DNA of 64,000 bases from Falsochrobactrum tianjinense (GTDB lineage Bacteria; Pseudomonadota; Alphaproteobacteria; Rhizobiales; Rhizobiaceae), in NCBI RefSeq assembly GCF_019100495.1, contig NZ_JAHRVA010000002.1:387960-451959 (forward strand). The letters run 5' to 3'. The notes beneath the pieces are model-generated. The model was not told the origin of the DNA and did no database searches. It was given only the letters and a program-made list of their open reading frames with translations. Positions 49,027 to 57,987 of this stretch are shown here, one piece after another; position 1 is the first letter of the stretch, and every line of letters starts with the position of its first letter. Both the position numbers and the translations under genes were made by a program.

Positions 49027-49869
49027 TCATCTAAGGGCTTCCAACTCGGCAATGCGCTCGGCGCTGTCTTTCTCCAGGGTGCGCGTCATTTCGCGAATGA
49101 TGGTTTCGGCCAGCACGAAGAGCGCTGCCGACGAATCCCACGCCGAAGGAGCCGCAATCCGTCCGGCCAAAACATGGCGTGCGACGCGCGCGATAGGCGA
49201 CAACCATTGGTCGGTAATGAGAATGATCTCCACGCTTCGGCTTTTCGCCTTTTCCGCAAGTTTCAAAAGGCTGTCCTGATAGCGGCGAATATCGAAGACG
49301 ATCAGAACATCACGCCTGCCCATATCGAGAAGGCGATCGCCCCACATGCTTTCCTGCCCGGCCAGATGGAACACGCGCGGACGGATGATCGACATATGCG
49401 CCGCCATATATTGCGCTATCGGATCGGTAAAACGCCCACCAATGAGATAGACGCTTCCCCTGGAATTACAAAGGGCTGCAACCACCTGCCGCAACTGCTT
49501 TTGGCCCAAGTGCCGGAAGCTTTCGCGAATATTGTCCAGCGTGTGCTCCACAGCCGGATAGGCGGCACCCGATCCCTTTTCCGGCTGTTCGTTGCGATGG
49601 TGCGGAGACTGAAGCTGCGCCGCCAGCTCATTCTGCAAGCAGACCTGAAAATCGGAATAATTATGGAAACCCAGCCGGTTCACGAAACGCAGAATTGTGG
49701 GAGAACTGACGCCCGCCTGCGCAGAAAATTCCGCGACAATTTTCAGGCCAAGCATCGGATAATTGGCGATCAGCGTTTGCGCGGCGCGGCGCTCGCCGGG
49801 CGGCATCGCGTCAATCCGCTCATTGATCAGTTCCGCGACACTCGCGCGCGCCAATGCGGTATTTTCCAT
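49027..49869 (-). CDS. MurR/RpiR family transcriptional regulator
   Basis: A 280-residue regulator with an N-terminal helix-turn-helix domain (about 1-80, containing FSAQAGVSSPTILRFVNRLG) and a SIS sugar/phosphate-binding domain (about 125-265, with GSVYLIGGRFTDPIAQYMAA and VLIVFDIRRYQDS). It is divergent from the catabolic operon across a 128-bp gap with a palindrome at 49966, and is probably its regulator. RpiR proteins usually respond to a phosphorylated or acid intermediate; the ligand here is unknown. Confidence 0.9.
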   Translation of the reverse strand: MENTALARASVAELINERIDAMPPGERRAAQTLIANYPMLGLKIVAEFSAQAGVSSPTILRFVNRLGFHNYSDFQVCLQNELAAQLQSPHHRNEQPEKGSGAAYPAVEHTLDNIRESFRHLGQKQLRQVVAALCNSRGSVYLIGGRFTDPIAQYMAAHMSIIRPRVFHLAGQESMWGDRLLDMGRRDVLIVFDIRRYQDSLLKLAEKAKSRSVEIILITDQWLSPIARVARHVLAGRIAAPSAWDSSAALFVLAETIIREMTRTLEKDSAERIAELEALR

Positions 49870-49965
49870 TCCGACTGCTCTTTCCCGAATATAGGCAAAA
49901 TTGTGTTTGACAAAGCATCATAGGACGTATCAAATAATCCACAATAGCGCACAAATGGAAAAAAC

Positions 49966-49979
49966 GTAACATAAGTTAC
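49966..49979. promoter_or_regulatory. Candidate RpiR operator
   Basis: GTAACATAAGTTAC is a perfect 5-bp inverted repeat around ATAA, 18 bp ahead of the first operon gene. HexR-type RpiR sites follow TGTA..TACA, which this site resembles (CGTAAC/GTTACAG). Confidence 0.5.
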
Positions 49980-49997
49980 AGCGCAGGGAACAAACAA

Positions 49998-50810
49998 ATG
50001 GTAGACGAGCGAGTTGATCGTGCGGATAGTCGGGATCTGCCTTCCGCACCGGTCATTGTCGTCAATGAAGATGGGAAAAGCCCTTATCTCTTCGTTTGCG
50101 AACATGCCTCCAATTTCATACCGAAAAATTTTGGGGGGCTAGGGCTAGATACCGAAGCGCTCACGGCCCACATCGCATGGGACCCCGGAGCGGTCGAAGT
50201 CGCACGGCATTTAAGTACGGCACTGGATGCAACCCTGATTGAGGCTGGCCTTTCGAGGCTGCTGATTGATTGCAACCGCCCGCTCGACGCGCATGACCTT
50301 ATCCCGGAAATCAGTGAAGCCACGGTCATTCCCGGAAACCACGCCCTCGATTCCATCGACCGCATGGCGCGGATCGACCTGTCGCACCGGCCATTTCATG
50401 CCTGCATCGAAAGCACGATCAAAGCTCGCGCGGCACACGGCCAGCCCTCATGGATCGTCACCATCCATTCCTTCACGCCCGTCTATCATGGCACATCGCG
50501 CCCCTGGCAGATCGGCATCATTCATGACAGGGACGACCGGATCGCAAGGCCCCTGATCGCGGGATTGAAACGGGACCCGGCCCTCAATGTCGGCGTCAAC
50601 GAGCCTTACTCGCCCGCAGACCGGGTCTATTACACGCTGGAGCGCCATGCACGTCCGCACAATTCGCCTTGCGTGATGATCGAAATCCGCAATGACGAGA
50701 TCACAAATGCGCAAACGCAAGAAGGTTGGGCAGCGCGCCTTGCCGCCATCTTCACGGATATAGCCGGGACGCTTGCGCCTCAAGATCACTTCACCGGACA
50801 GAAAGCCTGA
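49998..50810 (+). CDS. N-formylglutamate amidohydrolase family protein
   Basis: A 270-residue member of the HutG/N-formylglutamate amidohydrolase family (PF05013). Seen features are LFVCEHASNFIPK, RLLIDCNRP, VTIHSFTPVYHG and VMIEIRNDEI, which hold the family metal and substrate residues. It has no histidine-catabolism neighbours here. It is the first gene of an operon with a TRAP importer, a glutamine-synthetase-type ligase and two dehydrogenases. In this setting it could hydrolyse a gamma-glutamyl or N-acyl-glutamyl compound; this is inferred. Confidence 0.88.
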   Translation: MVDERVDRADSRDLPSAPVIVVNEDGKSPYLFVCEHASNFIPKNFGGLGLDTEALTAHIAWDPGAVEVARHLSTALDATLIEAGLSRLLIDCNRPLDAHDLIPEISEATVIPGNHALDSIDRMARIDLSHRPFHACIESTIKARAAHGQPSWIVTIHSFTPVYHGTSRPWQIGIIHDRDDRIARPLIAGLKRDPALNVGVNEPYSPADRVYYTLERHARPHNSPCVMIEIRNDEITNAQTQEGWAARLAAIFTDIAGTLAPQDHFTGQKA

Positions 50811-50821
50811 AGGAGCGGAAT

Positions 50822-51373
50822 ATGCCGAAGCCGATCAGACTGTTTGTCAAGTATGTAGATACTCTGAATTATTATGTCGGGCGCTTTGCGATGTATCTGT
50901 TTTTCGCACTTGCCGCCTGCCTGCTTTATTCAACGTTTTCGCGTGTTGTTTTTGGCGTGCCTATAAACTGGGTGCTGGAAATGTCGCAATTCATTCTCTC
51001 CGCCTATTATCTTCTGGGCGGGGCCTATGCCATGCAACAGGGCGCGCATGTGCGCATGGACCTGTTCTTCGACAGGCTCACGCCTCGAAGCAAGGCAATC
51101 ACCGACATGATCACCATCCTGTTTATCATCTTCTATCTGGGAGTGATGATCGCGGGCGGCATTTCATCAACCAATTACGCTATCGTCTATAACCAGAAGA
51201 ATTATACCGCCTGGGCGCCCGTCCTCTGGCCGATCAAGCTCATCATGACGGTCGGCGTCTTCCTTCTGCTTCTTCAATGCCTTTCCAATTTCTTCAAGGA
51301 CTGGGCCACCCTGCGAGGCAAGCCGATCCATACGATCGCAGGCCCGGCCATTGAGGAGGGGCACCACCTATGA
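50822..51373 (+). CDS. TRAP transporter small permease (DctQ)
   Basis: A 183-residue protein with four membrane helices, the DctQ arrangement. It starts MPKPIRLFVKYVDTLNYYVG behind GAAGGAGCGG, and the WVLEMSQFILSAYYLLGGAYAM segment is typical. It works with the large permease encoded next, whose ATG overlaps its stop by 4 bp. Confidence 0.92.
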   Translation: MPKPIRLFVKYVDTLNYYVGRFAMYLFFALAACLLYSTFSRVVFGVPINWVLEMSQFILSAYYLLGGAYAMQQGAHVRMDLFFDRLTPRSKAITDMITILFIIFYLGVMIAGGISSTNYAIVYNQKNYTAWAPVLWPIKLIMTVGVFLLLLQCLSNFFKDWATLRGKPIHTIAGPAIEEGHHL

Positions 51374-52695
51374 GCTCCGAACTCATCACGCTTTTCATGT
51401 TCGCCACCATGATGGTGCTGCTGATGACCGGGCAGCGTGTCTTCGGCGTCATCGGCTTCGTAGGTGCAGCGGCCGCGCTTCTGTTATGGGGCAAGGGCTC
51501 GTTCGAGATGCCCTACAATGCCACATTCGCGGTATTGAACTGGTATCCCCTCATCACCGTGCCGTTCTTTGTCTTCATGGGCTATATGCTGTCGGAATCG
51601 GGCATTGCGAGCAATCTTTACCGAATGTTCCATGTCTGGTTCGGGGGCATTCGCGGCGGGCTGGCACTGGGTACGGTTGGCCTGATGGTCATCATTTCAT
51701 GCATGAACGGCCTAAGCGTGGCAGGTATGGCCATCGGCGCGACGGTCGCCCTGCCCGAGCTTCTCAAGCGCGGTTACAACAAAATCATGGTCACGGGCGT
51801 CATTCAGGCGGGCAGTTCGCTCGGCATCCTCATCCCACCCAGCGTCGTGCTGGTGCTTTATGCGATGATTGCACGCCAGCCTGTATTGCAGCTCTGGCTG
51901 GCAGGCATCGGACCCGGTATCCTGATGGCATTGCTGTTTTCCATCTACATCTATATCCGCTGCCGCCTCCAGCCTGAACTGGGGCCGACCCTGCCAAAGG
52001 AGGAACTAGACAGGATCACCTGGGGTGAACGTTTCTCGTTATTACGTGCAGGTATCCTGCCGCTGGTGATTTTCGGCGCAATGATGGGCCTGTTTCTAAC
52101 TGGTGTGACAAGCCTCGTTGAAAGCGCTGCGGTCGGCGCACTCCTGGCAACGCTTGCCGCGCTTGTAACAAAACGACTTACAAAAGTAGTCTGGGAAACG
52201 ACCACCCGCAACACTCTCACTGTCACCTGCATGTTCCTCTGGATCATTCTGGCGGCACTGTGTTTCTCGTCGGTCTATGACGGGTTGGGGGCCGTGAAGG
52301 CAATTGAGAACGTATTGCTCGGCACATTCGATCTTTCGCCATGGACCATTCTCATACTCATGCTGCTGTCTTTCATCGTGCTGGGAATGTTCCTCGACGA
52401 TACCGCCATGCTGGTGATTGTCGCCCCGCTTTACATCCCATTGGTGAAGAGCCTTGGCTTCAATGCCATCTGGTTCGGCATTCTCTACACGATCACCTGC
52501 CAGATTGCGTACATCACACCGCCTTTCGGCTATAATCTCTTCATCATGAGAGCACTGGCGCCCAAGGATGTCACGCTGGTGGATATCTATCGCTCCATCG
52601 TGCCATTCTTCTTTCTGATGGTGCTGACCATCATCATCCTGATGATCTTTCCCCAGATCGCGATGTGGCTACCCGATTGGTACACGGGACGATGA
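51370..52695 (+). CDS. TRAP transporter large permease (DctM)
   Basis: A 441-residue membrane protein with about twelve helices, the sodium-coupled translocating subunit. Typical stretches are GSSLGILIPPSVVLVLYAM and GMFLDDTAMLVIVAPLYIPL. TRAP systems move carboxylates and related organic solutes. It is translationally coupled to the small permease by an ATGA overlap. Confidence 0.93.
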   Translation: MSSELITLFMFATMMVLLMTGQRVFGVIGFVGAAAALLLWGKGSFEMPYNATFAVLNWYPLITVPFFVFMGYMLSESGIASNLYRMFHVWFGGIRGGLALGTVGLMVIISCMNGLSVAGMAIGATVALPELLKRGYNKIMVTGVIQAGSSLGILIPPSVVLVLYAMIARQPVLQLWLAGIGPGILMALLFSIYIYIRCRLQPELGPTLPKEELDRITWGERFSLLRAGILPLVIFGAMMGLFLTGVTSLVESAAVGALLATLAALVTKRLTKVVWETTTRNTLTVTCMFLWIILAALCFSSVYDGLGAVKAIENVLLGTFDLSPWTILILMLLSFIVLGMFLDDTAMLVIVAPLYIPLVKSLGFNAIWFGILYTITCQIAYITPPFGYNLFIMRALAPKDVTLVDIYRSIVPFFFLMVLTIIILMIFPQIAMWLPDWYTGR

Positions 52696-52808
52696 CGAGA
52701 ACTTACGGAGGACAACCCATAAGACTGGCCACAAGAGCCGCAAAAGGCCGGGCCGCCATGGTTGAAGAGTACAAATAAGGGAACTTCAAACAAACGGGAG
52801 AATGAGCA

Positions 52809-53876
52809 ATGAGTGAGAATAACAGGCTTAACAAACGCGACTTTCTCAAAAAGGCCGGACTGACCGGCGTTGGCGCGCTTGGCGCGACCACACTCGCCGC
52901 GCCCTATGTTCGGGCACAAAGCCCGATCAAGTGGCGGCTTCAGACCTATGCCGGCCCAGCTTTGGCCGAGCACGTCATCAAGCCCTCCATCGACGCTTTC
53001 AACAAGGCGGCCAATGGTGAAATGGTGATCGAGCTTTACACGTCGGATCAGCTTGTGCCGCAGGGCGAGCTGTTCCGCGCCGTGCAAGCGGGAACCATCG
53101 ACGCCGCCCAGAGCGACGATGATTCCATGGCGTCACCTGTCGATGTCGCAGTATTCGGGGCCTATTTCCCCTTCGCCTCACGCTACAGCCTCGATGTGCC
53201 TGTCCTGTTCAACTGGTATGGCCTCAAGGAAATCTGGGAAGAGGCCTACAACGAAATCCCTGGCGTTACATGGCTGAGCGCCGGTGCCTGGGACCCCTGC
53301 AACTTCGCTACGACCAAGCCGATCCGCAGTCTGCAGGACTTGCAGGGGCTGCGTGTCTTTACCTTCCCGACCGGCGGACGCTTCCTCACCAAGTTCGGTG
53401 TCGTGCCTGTCACCTTGCCTTGGGAAGATATTGAAGTGGCGATCCAGACCGGCGAACTGGACGGCGTGTGCTGGTCCGGCGCAACGGAGGTCTATACGGT
53501 CGGCTGGGCCGACATCAATAAATACTACCTCACCAACAACATCAGCGGTGCATGGGCCGGTTCCTATTTTGCCAATACGGAGAAATGGAACGCAGTTCCT
53601 GATCATCTCAAACAACTGTTCAAGCTGGCGATGGATAGTTCGCATTATTACCGCCAGCACTGGTACTGGTGGGGTGAAGCGCATTACCGCACAACGGGCG
53701 GCAAGCTGGAACTCACCAGCATTCCGGAAGCCGAATGGCAGCAGGTGGAAGATGCGGCCATGCAGTTCTGGGATGAAATTGCCGCCAAGAGCGCACGCAC
53801 GGCCAAGGTGGTCGATATCCTGAAGAAATATCAGGAGACCATGCGCAAGGCTGGCGCACCATACCGTTATTCCTGA
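52809..53876 (+). CDS. TRAP transporter substrate-binding protein (DctP), Tat-type signal
   Basis: A 355-residue periplasmic binding protein. The N-terminus NKRDFLKKAGLTGVGALGAT resembles a Tat signal, but with Lys-Arg instead of Arg-Arg, and the cleavage follows VRAQ. The mature domain follows the DctP family, with a conserved ligand-binding stretch (VGAWDPCNFATTKPIRSLQD region). A strong terminator follows at 53884. The gap before this gene (52696-52808) has no other gene. Confidence 0.9.
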   Translation: MSENNRLNKRDFLKKAGLTGVGALGATTLAAPYVRAQSPIKWRLQTYAGPALAEHVIKPSIDAFNKAANGEMVIELYTSDQLVPQGELFRAVQAGTIDAAQSDDDSMASPVDVAVFGAYFPFASRYSLDVPVLFNWYGLKEIWEEAYNEIPGVTWLSAGAWDPCNFATTKPIRSLQDLQGLRVFTFPTGGRFLTKFGVVPVTLPWEDIEVAIQTGELDGVCWSGATEVYTVGWADINKYYLTNNISGAWAGSYFANTEKWNAVPDHLKQLFKLAMDSSHYYRQHWYWWGEAHYRTTGGKLELTSIPEAEWQQVEDAAMQFWDEIAAKSARTAKVVDILKKYQETMRKAGAPYRYS

Positions 53877-53883
53877 CGAATTC

Positions 53884-53917
53884 GGCGTCGCGCTCTGGCG
53901 CGGCGCCTCTCTTTTTT
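53884..53917 (+). terminator. Rho-independent terminator within the TRAP/ligase operon
   Basis: GGCGTCGCGC (53884-53893) pairs with GCGCGGCGCC (53898-53907) around TCTG, followed by TCTCTTTTTT. It stands between dctP and the ligase gene, so readthrough or a second promoter must serve the downstream genes. Confidence 0.88.
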
Positions 53918-53939
53918 CCCGTTTGGAGCGAAGCATTAA

Positions 53940-55310
53940 ATGGCCGAACAGTTGACTTTCGATGCATTGAAAAAAGCGGTCGCGAATGACGAGATCGATA
54001 CCGTGCTTGCCTGTTTCGTGGATATGCAGGGACGCCTGATTGGCAAACGCTTCTATGGGCAGTTCTTTGTAGAATCGGGCCACGAGGAAACACACGGTTG
54101 CAGTTATCTGCTTACCGACGATATCGATATGGAACCTGTCGCCGGCTATGAGGCGGCAAGCTGGGACAAGGGCTACGGCGATTTTGTCATCAAGCCGGAT
54201 CTCTCCACGCTGCGCCTTGCGCCATGGCTTGAAAAAACGGCCATAGTTCTGTGCGATGTGCTGGATCATCATGATCACGAAGATCTTTCGCATTCGCCCC
54301 GCGCTATCCTCAAAAAGCAGTTGGCACGTCTGCATGAACGCGGCTATCGCGCCTATTTCGCATCGGAACTGGAATTCTATCTTTTCGATGAGACTTATAA
54401 GAGCGCGCGCGCCAAGCACTGGCAAGCGATGGAAACCTCTTCGCCCTATGTGCAGGATTATGTGATCCACCTCACCACCAAGGAAGAACAGGTGCTGCGC
54501 GCCATGCGCAATCATCTCGCCGCCGCAGGAATTCCAGTGGAAAATTCCAAGGGTGAATGGGGCCCCGGCCAGCAGGAACTCAATGTGCGCTACGCCGAAG
54601 CGCTGGAAATGGCAGATCGTCATGTCGTCATGAAAAACGCCATGAAGGAAATCGCCGAAGCCCATGGCAAGTGCATCACTTTCATGGCCAAATATGATTA
54701 CAGCAGAGCTGGCAGCTCCAGCCATGTGCACAATTCGCTCTGGAGCGCCGACGGCAAGGAGCCGCTGTTCTTCGATCCGAAAGCGCCATACACGATGACG
54801 CCGCTGATGCGGTCATGGGTGGCGGGCCAGCTTAAATATGCTGCGGATTACACCTATTTTCTTGCGCCTTACATCAACTCCTACAAGCGTTTTCAGGCGG
54901 GTACTTTCGCGCCGACCAAGATCATGTGGAGCCAAGACAACCGAACGGCAGGCTTTCGCCTGTGCGGCGAAGGCACCAAGGCCATTCGCATGGAATGCCG
55001 CATCGGCGGCGCGGACCTGAACCCCTATCTCGCTTTCGCAGCGCTTATCGCCGCCGGTCTGAAAGGCGTAGACGAAAAGCTGGAACTGGACGAGCCATTC
55101 GTGGGCGATGCCTATAGCGCGGTGAAGCTGAAGGAAATTCCTTACACGCTGCGCGAAGCGGCTCAAGCGCTGAAGAACTCGGCGTTCCTCAGGGAGGCGC
55201 TGGGTGACGATGTGGTCAACCACTATGTCCATACCGCCCATTGGGAGCAGATCGAATATGATCGCCGTGTCACCGACTGGGAGCTGTATCGCGGGTTTGA
55301 GCGCTATTAG
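53940..55310 (+). CDS. Glutamine synthetase family protein, PuuA-like gamma-glutamyl ligase type
   Basis: A 456-residue enzyme with the glutamine synthetase fold. Active-site sections are ASELEFYLFDE (metal Glu), SSSHVHNSLWS (ammonia/substrate region), and IRMECRIGGADLNPYLAFAA. The last one reads GGAD-x-NPYL, the form found in PuuA and other amine ligases rather than in true GlnA. The GlnA adenylylation site is absent. It should join the gamma-carboxyl of glutamate to an amine using ATP, in the cytoplasm. Its neighbours are ALDH and Fe-ADH. Confidence 0.88.
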   Translation: MAEQLTFDALKKAVANDEIDTVLACFVDMQGRLIGKRFYGQFFVESGHEETHGCSYLLTDDIDMEPVAGYEAASWDKGYGDFVIKPDLSTLRLAPWLEKTAIVLCDVLDHHDHEDLSHSPRAILKKQLARLHERGYRAYFASELEFYLFDETYKSARAKHWQAMETSSPYVQDYVIHLTTKEEQVLRAMRNHLAAAGIPVENSKGEWGPGQQELNVRYAEALEMADRHVVMKNAMKEIAEAHGKCITFMAKYDYSRAGSSSHVHNSLWSADGKEPLFFDPKAPYTMTPLMRSWVAGQLKYAADYTYFLAPYINSYKRFQAGTFAPTKIMWSQDNRTAGFRLCGEGTKAIRMECRIGGADLNPYLAFAALIAAGLKGVDEKLELDEPFVGDAYSAVKLKEIPYTLREAAQALKNSAFLREALGDDVVNHYVHTAHWEQIEYDRRVTDWELYRGFERY

Positions 55311-55375
55311 AGGATTTCCAGCGAAAGCGCGCAGCGGTTTCGCGTCGAACAATGCGGCACAACAAAGACTGGGCC
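55311..55375 (+). repeat. Diverged fragment of the Bru-RS-like repeat (copy 3)
   Basis: ATTTCCAGCGAAAGCGCGCA and the following GGTTTCGCGTCGAACAATGC align with the first 60 bp or so of the elements at 6010 and 28451, with many substitutions. The terminal palindrome is missing. It fills the gap between the ligase and dehydrogenase genes. Confidence 0.5.
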
Positions 55376-55409
55376 AATAACGAAATGACCTTCTTCAAAG
55401 GAAATATCT

Positions 55410-56795
55410 ATGAGCGGCACGGCAAAACTTATCTCCCCAATTGATGGTTCGCTCTATGCGGAGCGTCCGTTTGCAAGCGAAGCCGCAATCCAGTCCGTGG
55501 TGTCGGCGGCGCGACAAGCACAGGCTAGCTGGGCGCGATTGAGTATCGCCGAACGGGCACGTTATTGCCGTGCCGCGCTCGATGCACTGGCGGCGATGCA
55601 GGACGAGATTATTCCGGAAATTGCCTGGCAGATGGGGCGCCCCACCAGATATGGCGGCGAGAACGGCGGCATGCAGGAACGCGGCCAGTATATGATCGAT
55701 ATAGCCGAAGATGCACTCAAACCCTATTTGCCCGCGCAAAAAAACGGTTTCAGTCGCTACGTGAAACATGTGCCGCTCGGCGTGGTGATGGTGATCGCGC
55801 CGTGGAATTACCCTTATCTCACCGCCGTCAACACGATTATCCCCGCATTGATGGCCGGAAACAGCGTGATCCTCAAACACGCGACACAGACGCTTCTGGC
55901 TGGTGAGCGCTTTGCCCAGGCTTTCGAGAAGGCAGGGCTGCCAAAAGGCGTATTTCAGAATGTCGTTCTGGATCACGCCTCGACGGAGAAATTGCTGGCA
56001 TCAGGCATGATCGACCATGTCAATTTCACGGGCTCGGTCGGCGGCGGGCGCGCGATCGAAAAGGCTGCTGCGGGCACTTTCATGTCGCTAGGGCTGGAGC
56101 TGGGCGGCAAGGATCCCGCCTATGTGCTGCCGGATGTCAATCTCGACCATGCGGTGGCCAACCTGGTCGATGGAGCCTTCTTCAATTCCGGTCAGTGCTG
56201 CTGCGGCATCGAACGCATCTATGTGCACGAAGCCGTGTACGACAAATTCGTCGACGGCTTTATTGATCTCACCAGGCAATATGTGGTCGGCAACCCGCTG
56301 GATGCGTCGACCACACTCGGTCCCATGGCGCAGGCGCGTTTTGCCGATCTCATCCGCGAACAGAAGGCGGAAGCCTTGCGCAAGGGAGCAAAAGCGCATG
56401 TGAATATGACTGCCGACCACGACAAGGCCGGATCGCCTTATATCGCGCCGGAAGTGCTGACCAGTGTCGATCACCAGATGAGCGTGATGCGTGAGGAAAG
56501 CTTTGGCCCCATTGTCGGCATCATGAAGGTGCGCAATGACGAGGAAGCGCTGGCTCTGATGAATGACAGCATTTACGGCCTCACCGCCTCACTCTGGACC
56601 ACGGACACCGACCATGCTGCAACACTTGGCGACCGCATCGAGACCGGCACCGTTTTCATGAACCGCTGCGACTATCTCGACCCAGCACTGGTCTGGACCG
56701 GCGTGAAGGACACCGGCAAAGGTGCTGCCCTTTCGCCCATCGGCTACGGCAATCTCACACGGCCCAAATCCTTCCACCTGCGTGAAAAAATCTGA
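55410..56795 (+). CDS. Aldehyde dehydrogenase family protein
   Basis: A 461-residue NAD(P)-dependent aldehyde dehydrogenase. The general base Glu230 lies in LGLELGGKDP, and the nucleophilic Cys is at 263-265 in NSGQCCCGIERIY. The Rossmann section is VMVIAPWNYPYL and MAGNSVILKHA. It would oxidise an aldehyde formed by the adjacent alcohol dehydrogenase. RBS AAGGAAATATCT precedes the ATG. Confidence 0.93.
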   Translation: MSGTAKLISPIDGSLYAERPFASEAAIQSVVSAARQAQASWARLSIAERARYCRAALDALAAMQDEIIPEIAWQMGRPTRYGGENGGMQERGQYMIDIAEDALKPYLPAQKNGFSRYVKHVPLGVVMVIAPWNYPYLTAVNTIIPALMAGNSVILKHATQTLLAGERFAQAFEKAGLPKGVFQNVVLDHASTEKLLASGMIDHVNFTGSVGGGRAIEKAAAGTFMSLGLELGGKDPAYVLPDVNLDHAVANLVDGAFFNSGQCCCGIERIYVHEAVYDKFVDGFIDLTRQYVVGNPLDASTTLGPMAQARFADLIREQKAEALRKGAKAHVNMTADHDKAGSPYIAPEVLTSVDHQMSVMREESFGPIVGIMKVRNDEEALALMNDSIYGLTASLWTTDTDHAATLGDRIETGTVFMNRCDYLDPALVWTGVKDTGKGAALSPIGYGNLTRPKSFHLREKI

Positions 56796-56823
56796 CCTGC
56801 ATTACCTTCGGAAAGCAAATGAC

Positions 56824-57987
56824 ATGACCACTTTGACCGCTAAATGGAATTTCCCCACCACTGTGCTTTTCGGACCGGGCCGTATCAAGGAACTGCCTGC
56901 CGTCCTAAAGGCCGCCGGTATCGAGAACCCGCTTTTTGTCACCGATCCAGGGCTGGCCAAGCTGCCTGTGGTCGCGTCCACTCTGGCGGTTCTCGATGCG
57001 GCAAACGTGCGCTATGCCGTCTTTTCCGATGTGAAACCCAATCCGGTCGAGAGCAATCTTCATGCAGGCGTCAAGGCGTTCAACGACGGCAAGCATGATG
57101 GCGTGATCGCTTTTGGCGGCGGCTCGGCACTCGATCTTGGCAAGTTGATCGCCTTTCAGTCTGGCCAGACGCGCCCTGTGTGGGATTTCGAGGATATTGG
57201 CGACTGGTGGACCCGCGCTGACGGCGACGCTATCGCGCCGATTATCGCCGTGCCGACGACGGCCGGCACCGGCTCGGAAGTGGGCCGCGCAGGCGTGCTG
57301 ACCAACGAAGCCACGCATACGAAGAAAGTCATCTTCCACCCGAAGATGCTTCCTGTAACGGTGATTGCCGATCCGGAGCTTTCCACCGGCATGCCGCCCT
57401 TCATCACCGCAGGCACCGGCATGGATGCGCTGGCGCATTGTCTTGAAGCCTATTGCGCACCGGGCTTTCACCCGATGGCAGACGGCATCGCACTTGAAGG
57501 CATCCGCCTCGTTTTCGAGAACCTGCCCAAAGCCTATGCCGATGGTTCCGACATCGAGGCGCGCGCGAATATGATGGCGGCGGCGGCCATGGGCGCGACC
57601 GCCTTTCAGAAAGGACTTGGCGCGATCCATTCGCTCTCCCACCCGATAGGCGCGCTTTACGACACTCATCATGGCATGACCAATGCCGTCTTCATGCCCT
57701 ATGTGCTACACCACAACCGGGTGGCGATTGAAAAGCGTATTGAGCGGCTTGCCGATTATCTTGGCATTGACGGTGGCTTCGACGGCTTCGTGGAAGCGAT
57801 CATGAAGCTGCGCAAAGAGTTGGGCGTACCCAACAGCTTGCCGGAATTCATCAAGGGGCTGGACATGGATGAAGTGCGAATGGATCTGATTGCGGAAATG
57901 GCGATCGTGGATCCGACCGCTGGCGGCAACCCCATTGAACTGACCAAGGAAGGCGCTCTGGATCTACTCAATGCGGCACTTGGGTAA
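56824..57987 (+). CDS. Iron-containing alcohol dehydrogenase
   Basis: A 387-residue group III alcohol dehydrogenase. The nucleotide-binding GGGSALDLGK (98-107) and metal-binding GMDALAHCLEAYCAPGF and IHSLSHPIGALYDTHHGMTN sections are both present, with the expected His and Asp residues. It would oxidise an alcohol to an aldehyde, passed to the ALDH next door. It follows the ALDH gene by 28 bp and ends the operon. Confidence 0.93.
   Translation: MTTLTAKWNFPTTVLFGPGRIKELPAVLKAAGIENPLFVTDPGLAKLPVVASTLAVLDAANVRYAVFSDVKPNPVESNLHAGVKAFNDGKHDGVIAFGGGSALDLGKLIAFQSGQTRPVWDFEDIGDWWTRADGDAIAPIIAVPTTAGTGSEVGRAGVLTNEATHTKKVIFHPKMLPVTVIADPELSTGMPPFITAGTGMDALAHCLEAYCAPGFHPMADGIALEGIRLVFENLPKAYADGSDIEARANMMAAAAMGATAFQKGLGAIHSLSHPIGALYDTHHGMTNAVFMPYVLHHNRVAIEKRIERLADYLGIDGGFDGFVEAIMKLRKELGVPNSLPEFIKGLDMDEVRMDLIAEMAIVDPTAGGNPIELTKEGALDLLNAALG

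What the first reader, a model, noticed from the sequence alone, without database searches (positions are those of the whole stretch)
49027..57987. Possible complete gamma-glutamylation pathway for an amino alcohol or amine
Seen: RpiR regulator divergent from N-formylglutamate amidohydrolase family, TRAP QMP importer, PuuA-like ligase, ALDH and Fe-ADH, in order on one strand. Known: in putrescine (Puu) and isopropylamine/alaninol-type pathways, a glutamine-synthetase relative caps the amine with glutamate, dehydrogenases oxidise the side chain and a hydrolase removes the glutamate. Inference: the ligase, Fe-ADH, ALDH and amidohydrolase supply all four steps, with the amidohydrolase family recruited for deglutamylation and TRAP as the entry route. 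Such a set with a HutG-type hydrolase and a TRAP carrier is, to my knowledge, not described.
Basis: partly seen in the sequence, partly recalled or inferred. Interest (0 to 1): 0.8.

Follow-up and report, generated by a model that had tools for sequence, protein, structure and literature searches.

The report
Known ethanolamine gamma-glutamylation operon
This is a further copy of an already published bacterial gene set that is thought to import ethanolamine, cap it with glutamate, oxidise it and release glycine; the genes were read well but the system is not new.

Summary
The inferred chemistry is very probably right, and the substrate can be named: ethanolamine.

The claim that the set "is not described" is wrong. 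The same eight genes in the same order were published for Phaeobacter sp. MED193 (PMC10132767). A review table lists the same four enzyme families for Chromohalobacter salexigens (PMC9397018). The nearest solved binding protein is Csal_0678, which binds ethanolamine. The second-nearest solved ligase by sequence is Csal_0679.

Added here:
- the ligase has Phe323 where glutamine synthetase has a catalytic Glu, as in the ethanolamine ligase GlnA4;
- a palindrome conserved in close relatives may be the RpiR operator;
- PDB 11zs, deposited as a Brucella melitensis "glutamine synthetase", looks like this ligase's orthologue.

Verdict: already known, low interest.

The parts
49027..49869 (-). RpiR-family regulator (HTH_6 + SIS), divergent; counterpart by position of MED193_10021
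   Evidence: published order
49907..49935 (+). predicted promoter: TTGACA -35-like hexamer and TATCAAAT -10-like region (inference)
   Evidence: TTGACA-to-palindrome spacing of 58-59 kept in 49 of 60 intergenic regions
49966..49979 (.). palindrome GTAAC-N4-GTTAC, candidate operator of the RpiR regulator (inference)
49998..50810 (+). PF05013 amidohydrolase; proposed gamma-glutamylglycine amidohydrolase (GGAH)
   Evidence: published role proposal
50822..51373 (+). TRAP small permease DctQ / EtoV (start inferred)
51370..52695 (+). TRAP large permease DctM / EtoW
52809..53876 (+). TRAP binding protein DctP / EtoX, ethanolamine-binding protein family
   Evidence: 522 bits to 4uab, which is Csal_0678, ethanolamine-binding
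53940..55310 (+). GS-like ligase, proposed ethanolamine gamma-glutamylase (ETAGA)
   Evidence: 5dm3 = Csal_0679 and 11zs; residue check
55410..56795 (+). aldehyde dehydrogenase, proposed dehydrogenase of the gamma-glutamyl aldehyde (GAADDH)
   Evidence: position as
56824..57987 (+). iron-containing alcohol dehydrogenase, proposed gamma-glutamylethanolamide dehydrogenase (GETADH; start inferred)
   Evidence: position as

Best explanation
The operon imports and catabolises ethanolamine by the published gamma-glutamylation route. EtoX/EtoV/EtoW (TRAP) brings ethanolamine in. The GS-like ligase uses ATP to join it to glutamate, giving gamma-glutamylethanolamide. The Fe-ADH oxidises the alcohol to the aldehyde and the ALDH oxidises that to gamma-glutamylglycine. 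The FGase-family amidohydrolase splits it into glutamate and glycine. The divergent RpiR protein probably represses the operon at a palindrome just downstream of the promoter. Shown here: gene identity, order, relatedness and conservation. Shown by others in relatives: ethanolamine binding by the binding protein, induction of five of the proteins, and the ligase step for GlnA4. Inferred for this organism: all enzyme activities, the order of steps and the operator. In the passages I read, the hydrolase step is proposed, not assayed, in any organism.
For: Same eight-gene order as the Phaeobacter ethanolamine operon, whose EtoX binds ethanolamine with Kd 7.9 uM and whose hydrolase, binding protein, ligase and both dehydrogenases rise on phosphorylethanolamine. 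DctP is closest to 4uab/4xf5 = Csal_0678 at 522 bits, next solved hit 62 bits; Csal_0678 binds ethanolamine. The ligase is closest to 11zs (969 bits) and 5dm3 = Csal_0679 (567 bits), the next solved hit being 179 bits. The four enzyme families match the C. salexigens table in PMC9397018. Substrate pointer independent of TRAP: near-full-length matches to the NCBIfam ethanolamine permease model (343, 345 and 375 bits; cut-off 382, just missed) beside the ligase in L048, L055 and L052, with related proteins in L057, L058 and L099. The GS catalytic Glu of the flexible loop is Phe323 here, as reported for GlnA4. The window's genome shows no EutB and has glycine decarboxylase.
Against: No activity has been measured for this organism. 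The Tyr that lines the GS ammonium pocket appears kept (Tyr174, invariant in 17 aligned ligases), unlike GlnA4, where it is replaced. The ethanolamine-permease matches fall just under the curated cut-off. In the class-wide sample the link is loose: of 30 ligase loci, 8 had FGase, 10 had TRAP, 6 had all eight genes and 6 had the ligase alone. I could not read the primary C. salexigens paper, and the papers that cite it differ: PMC10132767 says the pathway was demonstrated, PMC6529630 says it was predicted in silico.
Confidence: 0.93

Rival explanations
1. The same chemistry, but the natural substrate is another short amino alcohol such as alaninol (2-amino-1-propanol) or 3-aminopropanol.
For: The ligase family acts on varied amines; a record annotated ipuC (isopropylamine route) is 37% identical. 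A second Csal_0678 structure, 4xf5, exists; I recall that its ligand is 2-amino-1-propanol, but the title is cut off in the output.
Against: Published EtoX binds ethanolamine in the micromolar range (amino alcohols other than ethanolamine were not among the analogues named in the passage), and ethanolamine-permease-like proteins turn up in the same slot in other loci.
Confidence: 0.05
2. A putrescine (Puu-type) pathway.
For: A GS-like ligase and an aldehyde dehydrogenase are shared with Puu (recalled; families).
Against: PuuA model 199 bits against a cut-off of 650, PuuC model 200 against 850; an alcohol dehydrogenase has no place in that route; the hydrolase is PF05013, whereas PuuD is, as I recall, of the class I glutamine amidotransferase type.
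Confidence: 0.01
3. The ligase is an ordinary glutamine synthetase that happens to lie next to a TRAP carrier.
For: PDB 11zs, its close relative, is deposited as a glutamine synthetase; the pocket Tyr is kept.
Against: Type I GS model 250 bits against a cut-off of 429 and type III 234 against 470; a separate 469-aa GS, which I read as the GSI, exists in the genome (L066); loop Glu replaced by Phe323 and the Asp50 position by Ala68; linkage with Fe-ADH in 58 and ALDH in 59 of 63 loci.
Confidence: 0.01

Closest known systems
Eto operon of Phaeobacter sp. MED193 (MED193_10021 to 10056; PMC10132767)
   Same: Same eight genes, same order, same RpiR at the start
   Different: Marine Roseobacter-group host; the sequences of the MED193 genes themselves were not compared here
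Chromohalobacter salexigens ethanolamine pathway (Csal_0678 binding protein, Csal_0679 ligase)
   Same: Nearest solved binding protein and second-nearest solved ligase by sequence; same four enzyme families
   Different: A gammaproteobacterium; its full gene order was not seen here
Streptomyces coelicolor GlnA4 ethanolamine pathway (PMC6529630)
   Same: Ligase of the same proposed reaction; Phe replaces the GS loop Glu
   Different: Figure legend lists a short-chain dehydrogenase, a putative ethanolamine transporter and a glutamine amidotransferase, and neither Fe-ADH nor TRAP
Isopropylamine/alaninol (Ipu) pathway
   Same: Same capping idea; the annotated ipuC product is a relative of the ligase
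   Different: 37% identity only; other enzymes differ (recalled)

Membership tests
Ethanolamine gamma-glutamylation (Eto) operon | Gene set and order RpiR / hydrolase, EtoV, EtoW, EtoX, ligase, ALDH, Fe-ADH | tested here: met
   against the published order
Ethanolamine gamma-glutamylation (Eto) operon | Binding protein closest to ethanolamine-binding Csal_0678 | tested here: met
   522 bits, next solved hit 62 bits; identity of 4uab
Ethanolamine gamma-glutamylation (Eto) operon | Binding protein lacks the Arg that holds carboxylates in other TRAP binding proteins | tested here: met
   RVFTFPT in the window and Csal_0678, where the two other DctP proteins found in the same genome have Arg (MKIRV); lack in Csal_0678 stated. 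The alignment has a one-residue gap at this place
Ethanolamine gamma-glutamylation (Eto) operon | Ligase lacks the GS ammonium-site acidic residues | tested here: met
   E327 position = Phe323, D50 position = Ala68 in a MAFFT alignment; GS numbering, its placement on the genome's own GS from recall; the D50 region aligns poorly. The Tyr179 position is kept
Ethanolamine gamma-glutamylation (Eto) operon | Enzyme activities and induction by ethanolamine | not testable with these tools
   needs assays
Putrescine (Puu) pathway | Ligase at PuuA equivalog level | tested here: not met
   199 bits against 650
Canonical Eut pathway | Ethanolamine ammonia-lyase EutB | tested here: not met
   no match in the 99.86% complete genome; the control run found it in E. 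coli
Type I or III glutamine synthetase | Score over the equivalog cut-off | tested here: not met
   250/429 and 234/470 bits

The most novel reading that the evidence does not exclude
The pathway is known, but its transport module looks interchangeable. The TRAP slot is taken by an ethanolamine-permease-like protein in Devosia loci and by a different amino acid permease (2A0304-like) in Mesorhizobium and some Ochrobactrum loci, which would make that permease a third, uncharacterised ethanolamine importer. RpiR would control these operons in Brucellaceae and Mesorhizobium through a GTAAC-N4-GTTAC operator placed at a fixed distance from the promoter.
Probability: 0.6. Interest if true: 0.25.

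Novelty: already known. Interest (0 to 1): 0.12.

Why it matters
It names ethanolamine, a phospholipid head group, as the likely substrate for a set of genes annotated generically in Rhizobiales. It also suggests that close relatives labelled 'glutamine synthetase', including PDB 11zs, may be ethanolamine ligases. That is useful for annotation, not a new kind of system.

Tried and rejected
Considered and rejected: Puu pathway, plain glutamine synthetase, canonical Eut (see rivals and membership). The novelty claim was tested by eight paper searches. One search found nothing, probably because four exact terms were demanded; two searches found the describing papers. One search listed papers on etoxazole, the eTOX project and similar, none on this operon. 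The C. salexigens primary paper (10.1021/bi501388y, recalled as Vetting et al. 2015) is not held, so I know it only through papers that cite it.

Weak results: the EtoX model is poor (mean pLDDT 59) and was used only to obtain entry titles through a structure match; the sequence match stands on its own. The ligase model is fair (74.7). In one search I aligned wrong open frames for the two other DctP proteins and repeated it correctly. The operator idea does not hold outside close relatives: 11 of 60 intergenic regions do not show it at the kept spacing. By itself the palindrome is not beyond chance in the window (with one mismatch allowed, 24 of 100 shuffles have at least one match), and the backwards control of the 16-bp site gave 3 hits in the genome against 1 real, exact hit. 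That FGase can be replaced by another hydrolase rests on one annotated Arthrobacter plasmid.

Full report
Observation. The eight genes are present as open frames in the order given. NCBIfam shows that the ligase is neither a type I or III glutamine synthetase nor PuuA at the curated cut-offs. DctQ probably begins at 50822 and Fe-ADH at 56824.

What it is. The DctP protein matches PDB 4uab/4xf5 at 522 bits, the next solved sequence being at 62 bits. A structure comparison gave the entry titles: both are Csal_0678 of Chromohalobacter salexigens. A passage in PMC4646407 states that Csal_0678 binds ethanolamine and lacks the Arg typical of carboxylate-binding TRAP proteins. The window protein also lacks it (RVFTFPT, the same letters as Csal_0678), whereas the other two DctP proteins found in the same genome have Arg there, with a one-residue gap in the alignment. 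The ligase matches 11zs (969 bits) and 5dm3 (567 bits), the next being 179 bits. Titles identify 5dm3 as Csal_0679 and 11zs as a Brucella melitensis 'glutamine synthetase' released 2026-04-08.

Prior description. PMC10132767 (passages and section 9 read) gives for Phaeobacter sp. MED193 the operon RpiR, GGAH, EtoV, EtoW, EtoX, ETAGA, GAADDH, GETADH, that is, the window's order. It reports Kd 7.9 uM of EtoX for ethanolamine and higher amounts of GGAH, EtoX, the ligase and both dehydrogenases on phosphorylethanolamine (EtoX also rose without phosphate). Its figure calls the pathway predicted, and its text says that related genes were demonstrated to work in C. salexigens and Agrobacterium tumefaciens C58. 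PMC9397018 (passages) tabulates PF00120, PF00465, PF00171 and PF05013 for C. salexigens. PMC6529630 (passages) demonstrates the ligase step for GlnA4, calls the C. salexigens pathway an in silico prediction, and proposes hydrolysis of gamma-glutamylglycine by the formylglutamate amidohydrolase family. So the claim that a HutG-type hydrolase with a TRAP carrier is undescribed is wrong, while the hydrolase step itself was only proposed in what I read.

Synteny among ligase loci. Of 63 genome-contig loci found with the ligase, 54 have FGase, 49 RpiR, 59 ALDH, 58 Fe-ADH, 28 TRAP and 25 all eight genes (thresholds 32% identity for FGase and RpiR, 40% for the rest; five of these loci are under 15 kb and may miss genes). 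This sample leans to close relatives. In an even draw of 289 alphaproteobacterial genomes, own genome included, 75 had a match at E up to 1e-60. I fetched the 30 loci of other genomes with at least 50% identity in that call, and two at about 41%. Among the 30, 23 have Fe-ADH, 15 ALDH, 10 TRAP, 8 FGase, 8 RpiR and 6 all eight; 6 have the ligase alone (three are under 15 kb). Linkage is thus strong among Brucellaceae and Mesorhizobium, complete in some distant genomes, and loose across the class.

Presence in relatives. In 40 genomes (own included), 31 have the ligase at E up to 1e-120 and 24 have EtoX at E up to 1e-100; within the genus, own genome not counted, the figures are 22 of 23 and 16 of 23.

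Transporter swap. Where TRAP is missing, a permease often takes the slot between FGase and ligase. In L048 and L055 the best family is the ethanolamine permease TIGR00908 (343 and 345 bits); in L052, which has no FGase hit, a 375-bit match lies just before the ligase; the cut-off is 382. L057 has the same layout as L055, L058 has a related protein before the ligase without FGase, and L099 has the order RpiR, FGase, permease, ligase, ALDH, Fe-ADH. In 20 loci, 16 of them Mesorhizobium by record title, a different amino acid permease sits between FGase and ligase; the two scanned, L016 and L027, fit 2A0304 best (206 and 212 bits, cut-off 598). Ten of 63 loci, and 19 of the 30 in the class sample, show none of the three. 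The permease swap points to ethanolamine without using the TRAP evidence.

Ligase residues. Aligned with the genome's own GS (L066), the loop Glu is Phe323 and the Asp50 position is Ala68, the latter in a poorly aligned region. PMC6529630 reports Phe331 at the loop position in GlnA4. The Tyr of the ammonium pocket is kept (Tyr174), which differs from GlnA4 and is told as a point against.

Regulation. The 128-bp gap between RpiR and FGase holds TTGACA at 49907, TATCAAAT at 49928-49935 and GTAACATAAGTTAC at 49966-49979. With up to two mismatches the 16-bp site occurs once, exactly, in the 3.5 Mb genome; the backwards control gave 2 and 1 hits. The bare palindrome with one mismatch allowed is not beyond chance in the window (24 of 100 shuffles), so the case rests on conservation. 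Among 60 intergenic regions (window included), 32 have the exact half-sites and 49 have at least 8 of 10 half-site bases at a fixed 58-59 bp from TTGACA. In L042 both arms changed and the palindrome was kept. The 11 others, from more distant genomes, do not fit. Shared ancestry could explain part of this.

Context. The genome shows no EutB, so it lacks the canonical Eut route, and it has glycine decarboxylase to use the glycine. Two other PF05013 proteins exist elsewhere, so the operon copy need not serve histidine breakdown.

Verdict.

Noticed in passing
window:53940-55310, PDB 11zs: PDB 11zs, deposited as a Brucella melitensis glutamine synthetase, is 86% identical to this ligase in the structure alignment; the window ligase scores 969 bits against it and at most 179 against solved entries other than 11zs and 5dm3. 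The deposited name may be misleading.
   Followed up: partly
L016:8376-9935, L027:8357-9913: A 2A0304-like amino acid permease sits between FGase and ligase in 20 of 63 loci: possible uncharacterised ethanolamine importer.
   Followed up: partly
L131 (Arthrobacter sp. U41 plasmid, typed conjugative): An actinobacterial version with a gamma-glutamyl-GABA-hydrolase-family protein next to the ligase, plus amidase, inositol-monophosphatase-family and choline-kinase-family genes.
   Followed up: no
L132 (Ruegeria conchae plasmid): Variant with a sulfatase-like hydrolase and an inositol-monophosphatase-family gene beside FGase, ligase, ALDH and Fe-ADH; perhaps feeds in a phosphorylated head group (inference).
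   Followed up: no
L059: Record titled Bacillus subtilis SK6B4 carries a Pseudochrobactrum-like operon (85% identical ligase, same layout): probably a mislabelled or mixed genome.
   Followed up: no
L048, L055 upstream of FGase (L055:6551-7408): A PPK2 polyphosphate kinase gene lies just before FGase in L055; L048 has a similar frame.
   Followed up: no
window:44467-47559 +: 1030-aa protein that looks like an autotransporter, upstream of the operon (by eye only).
   Followed up: no
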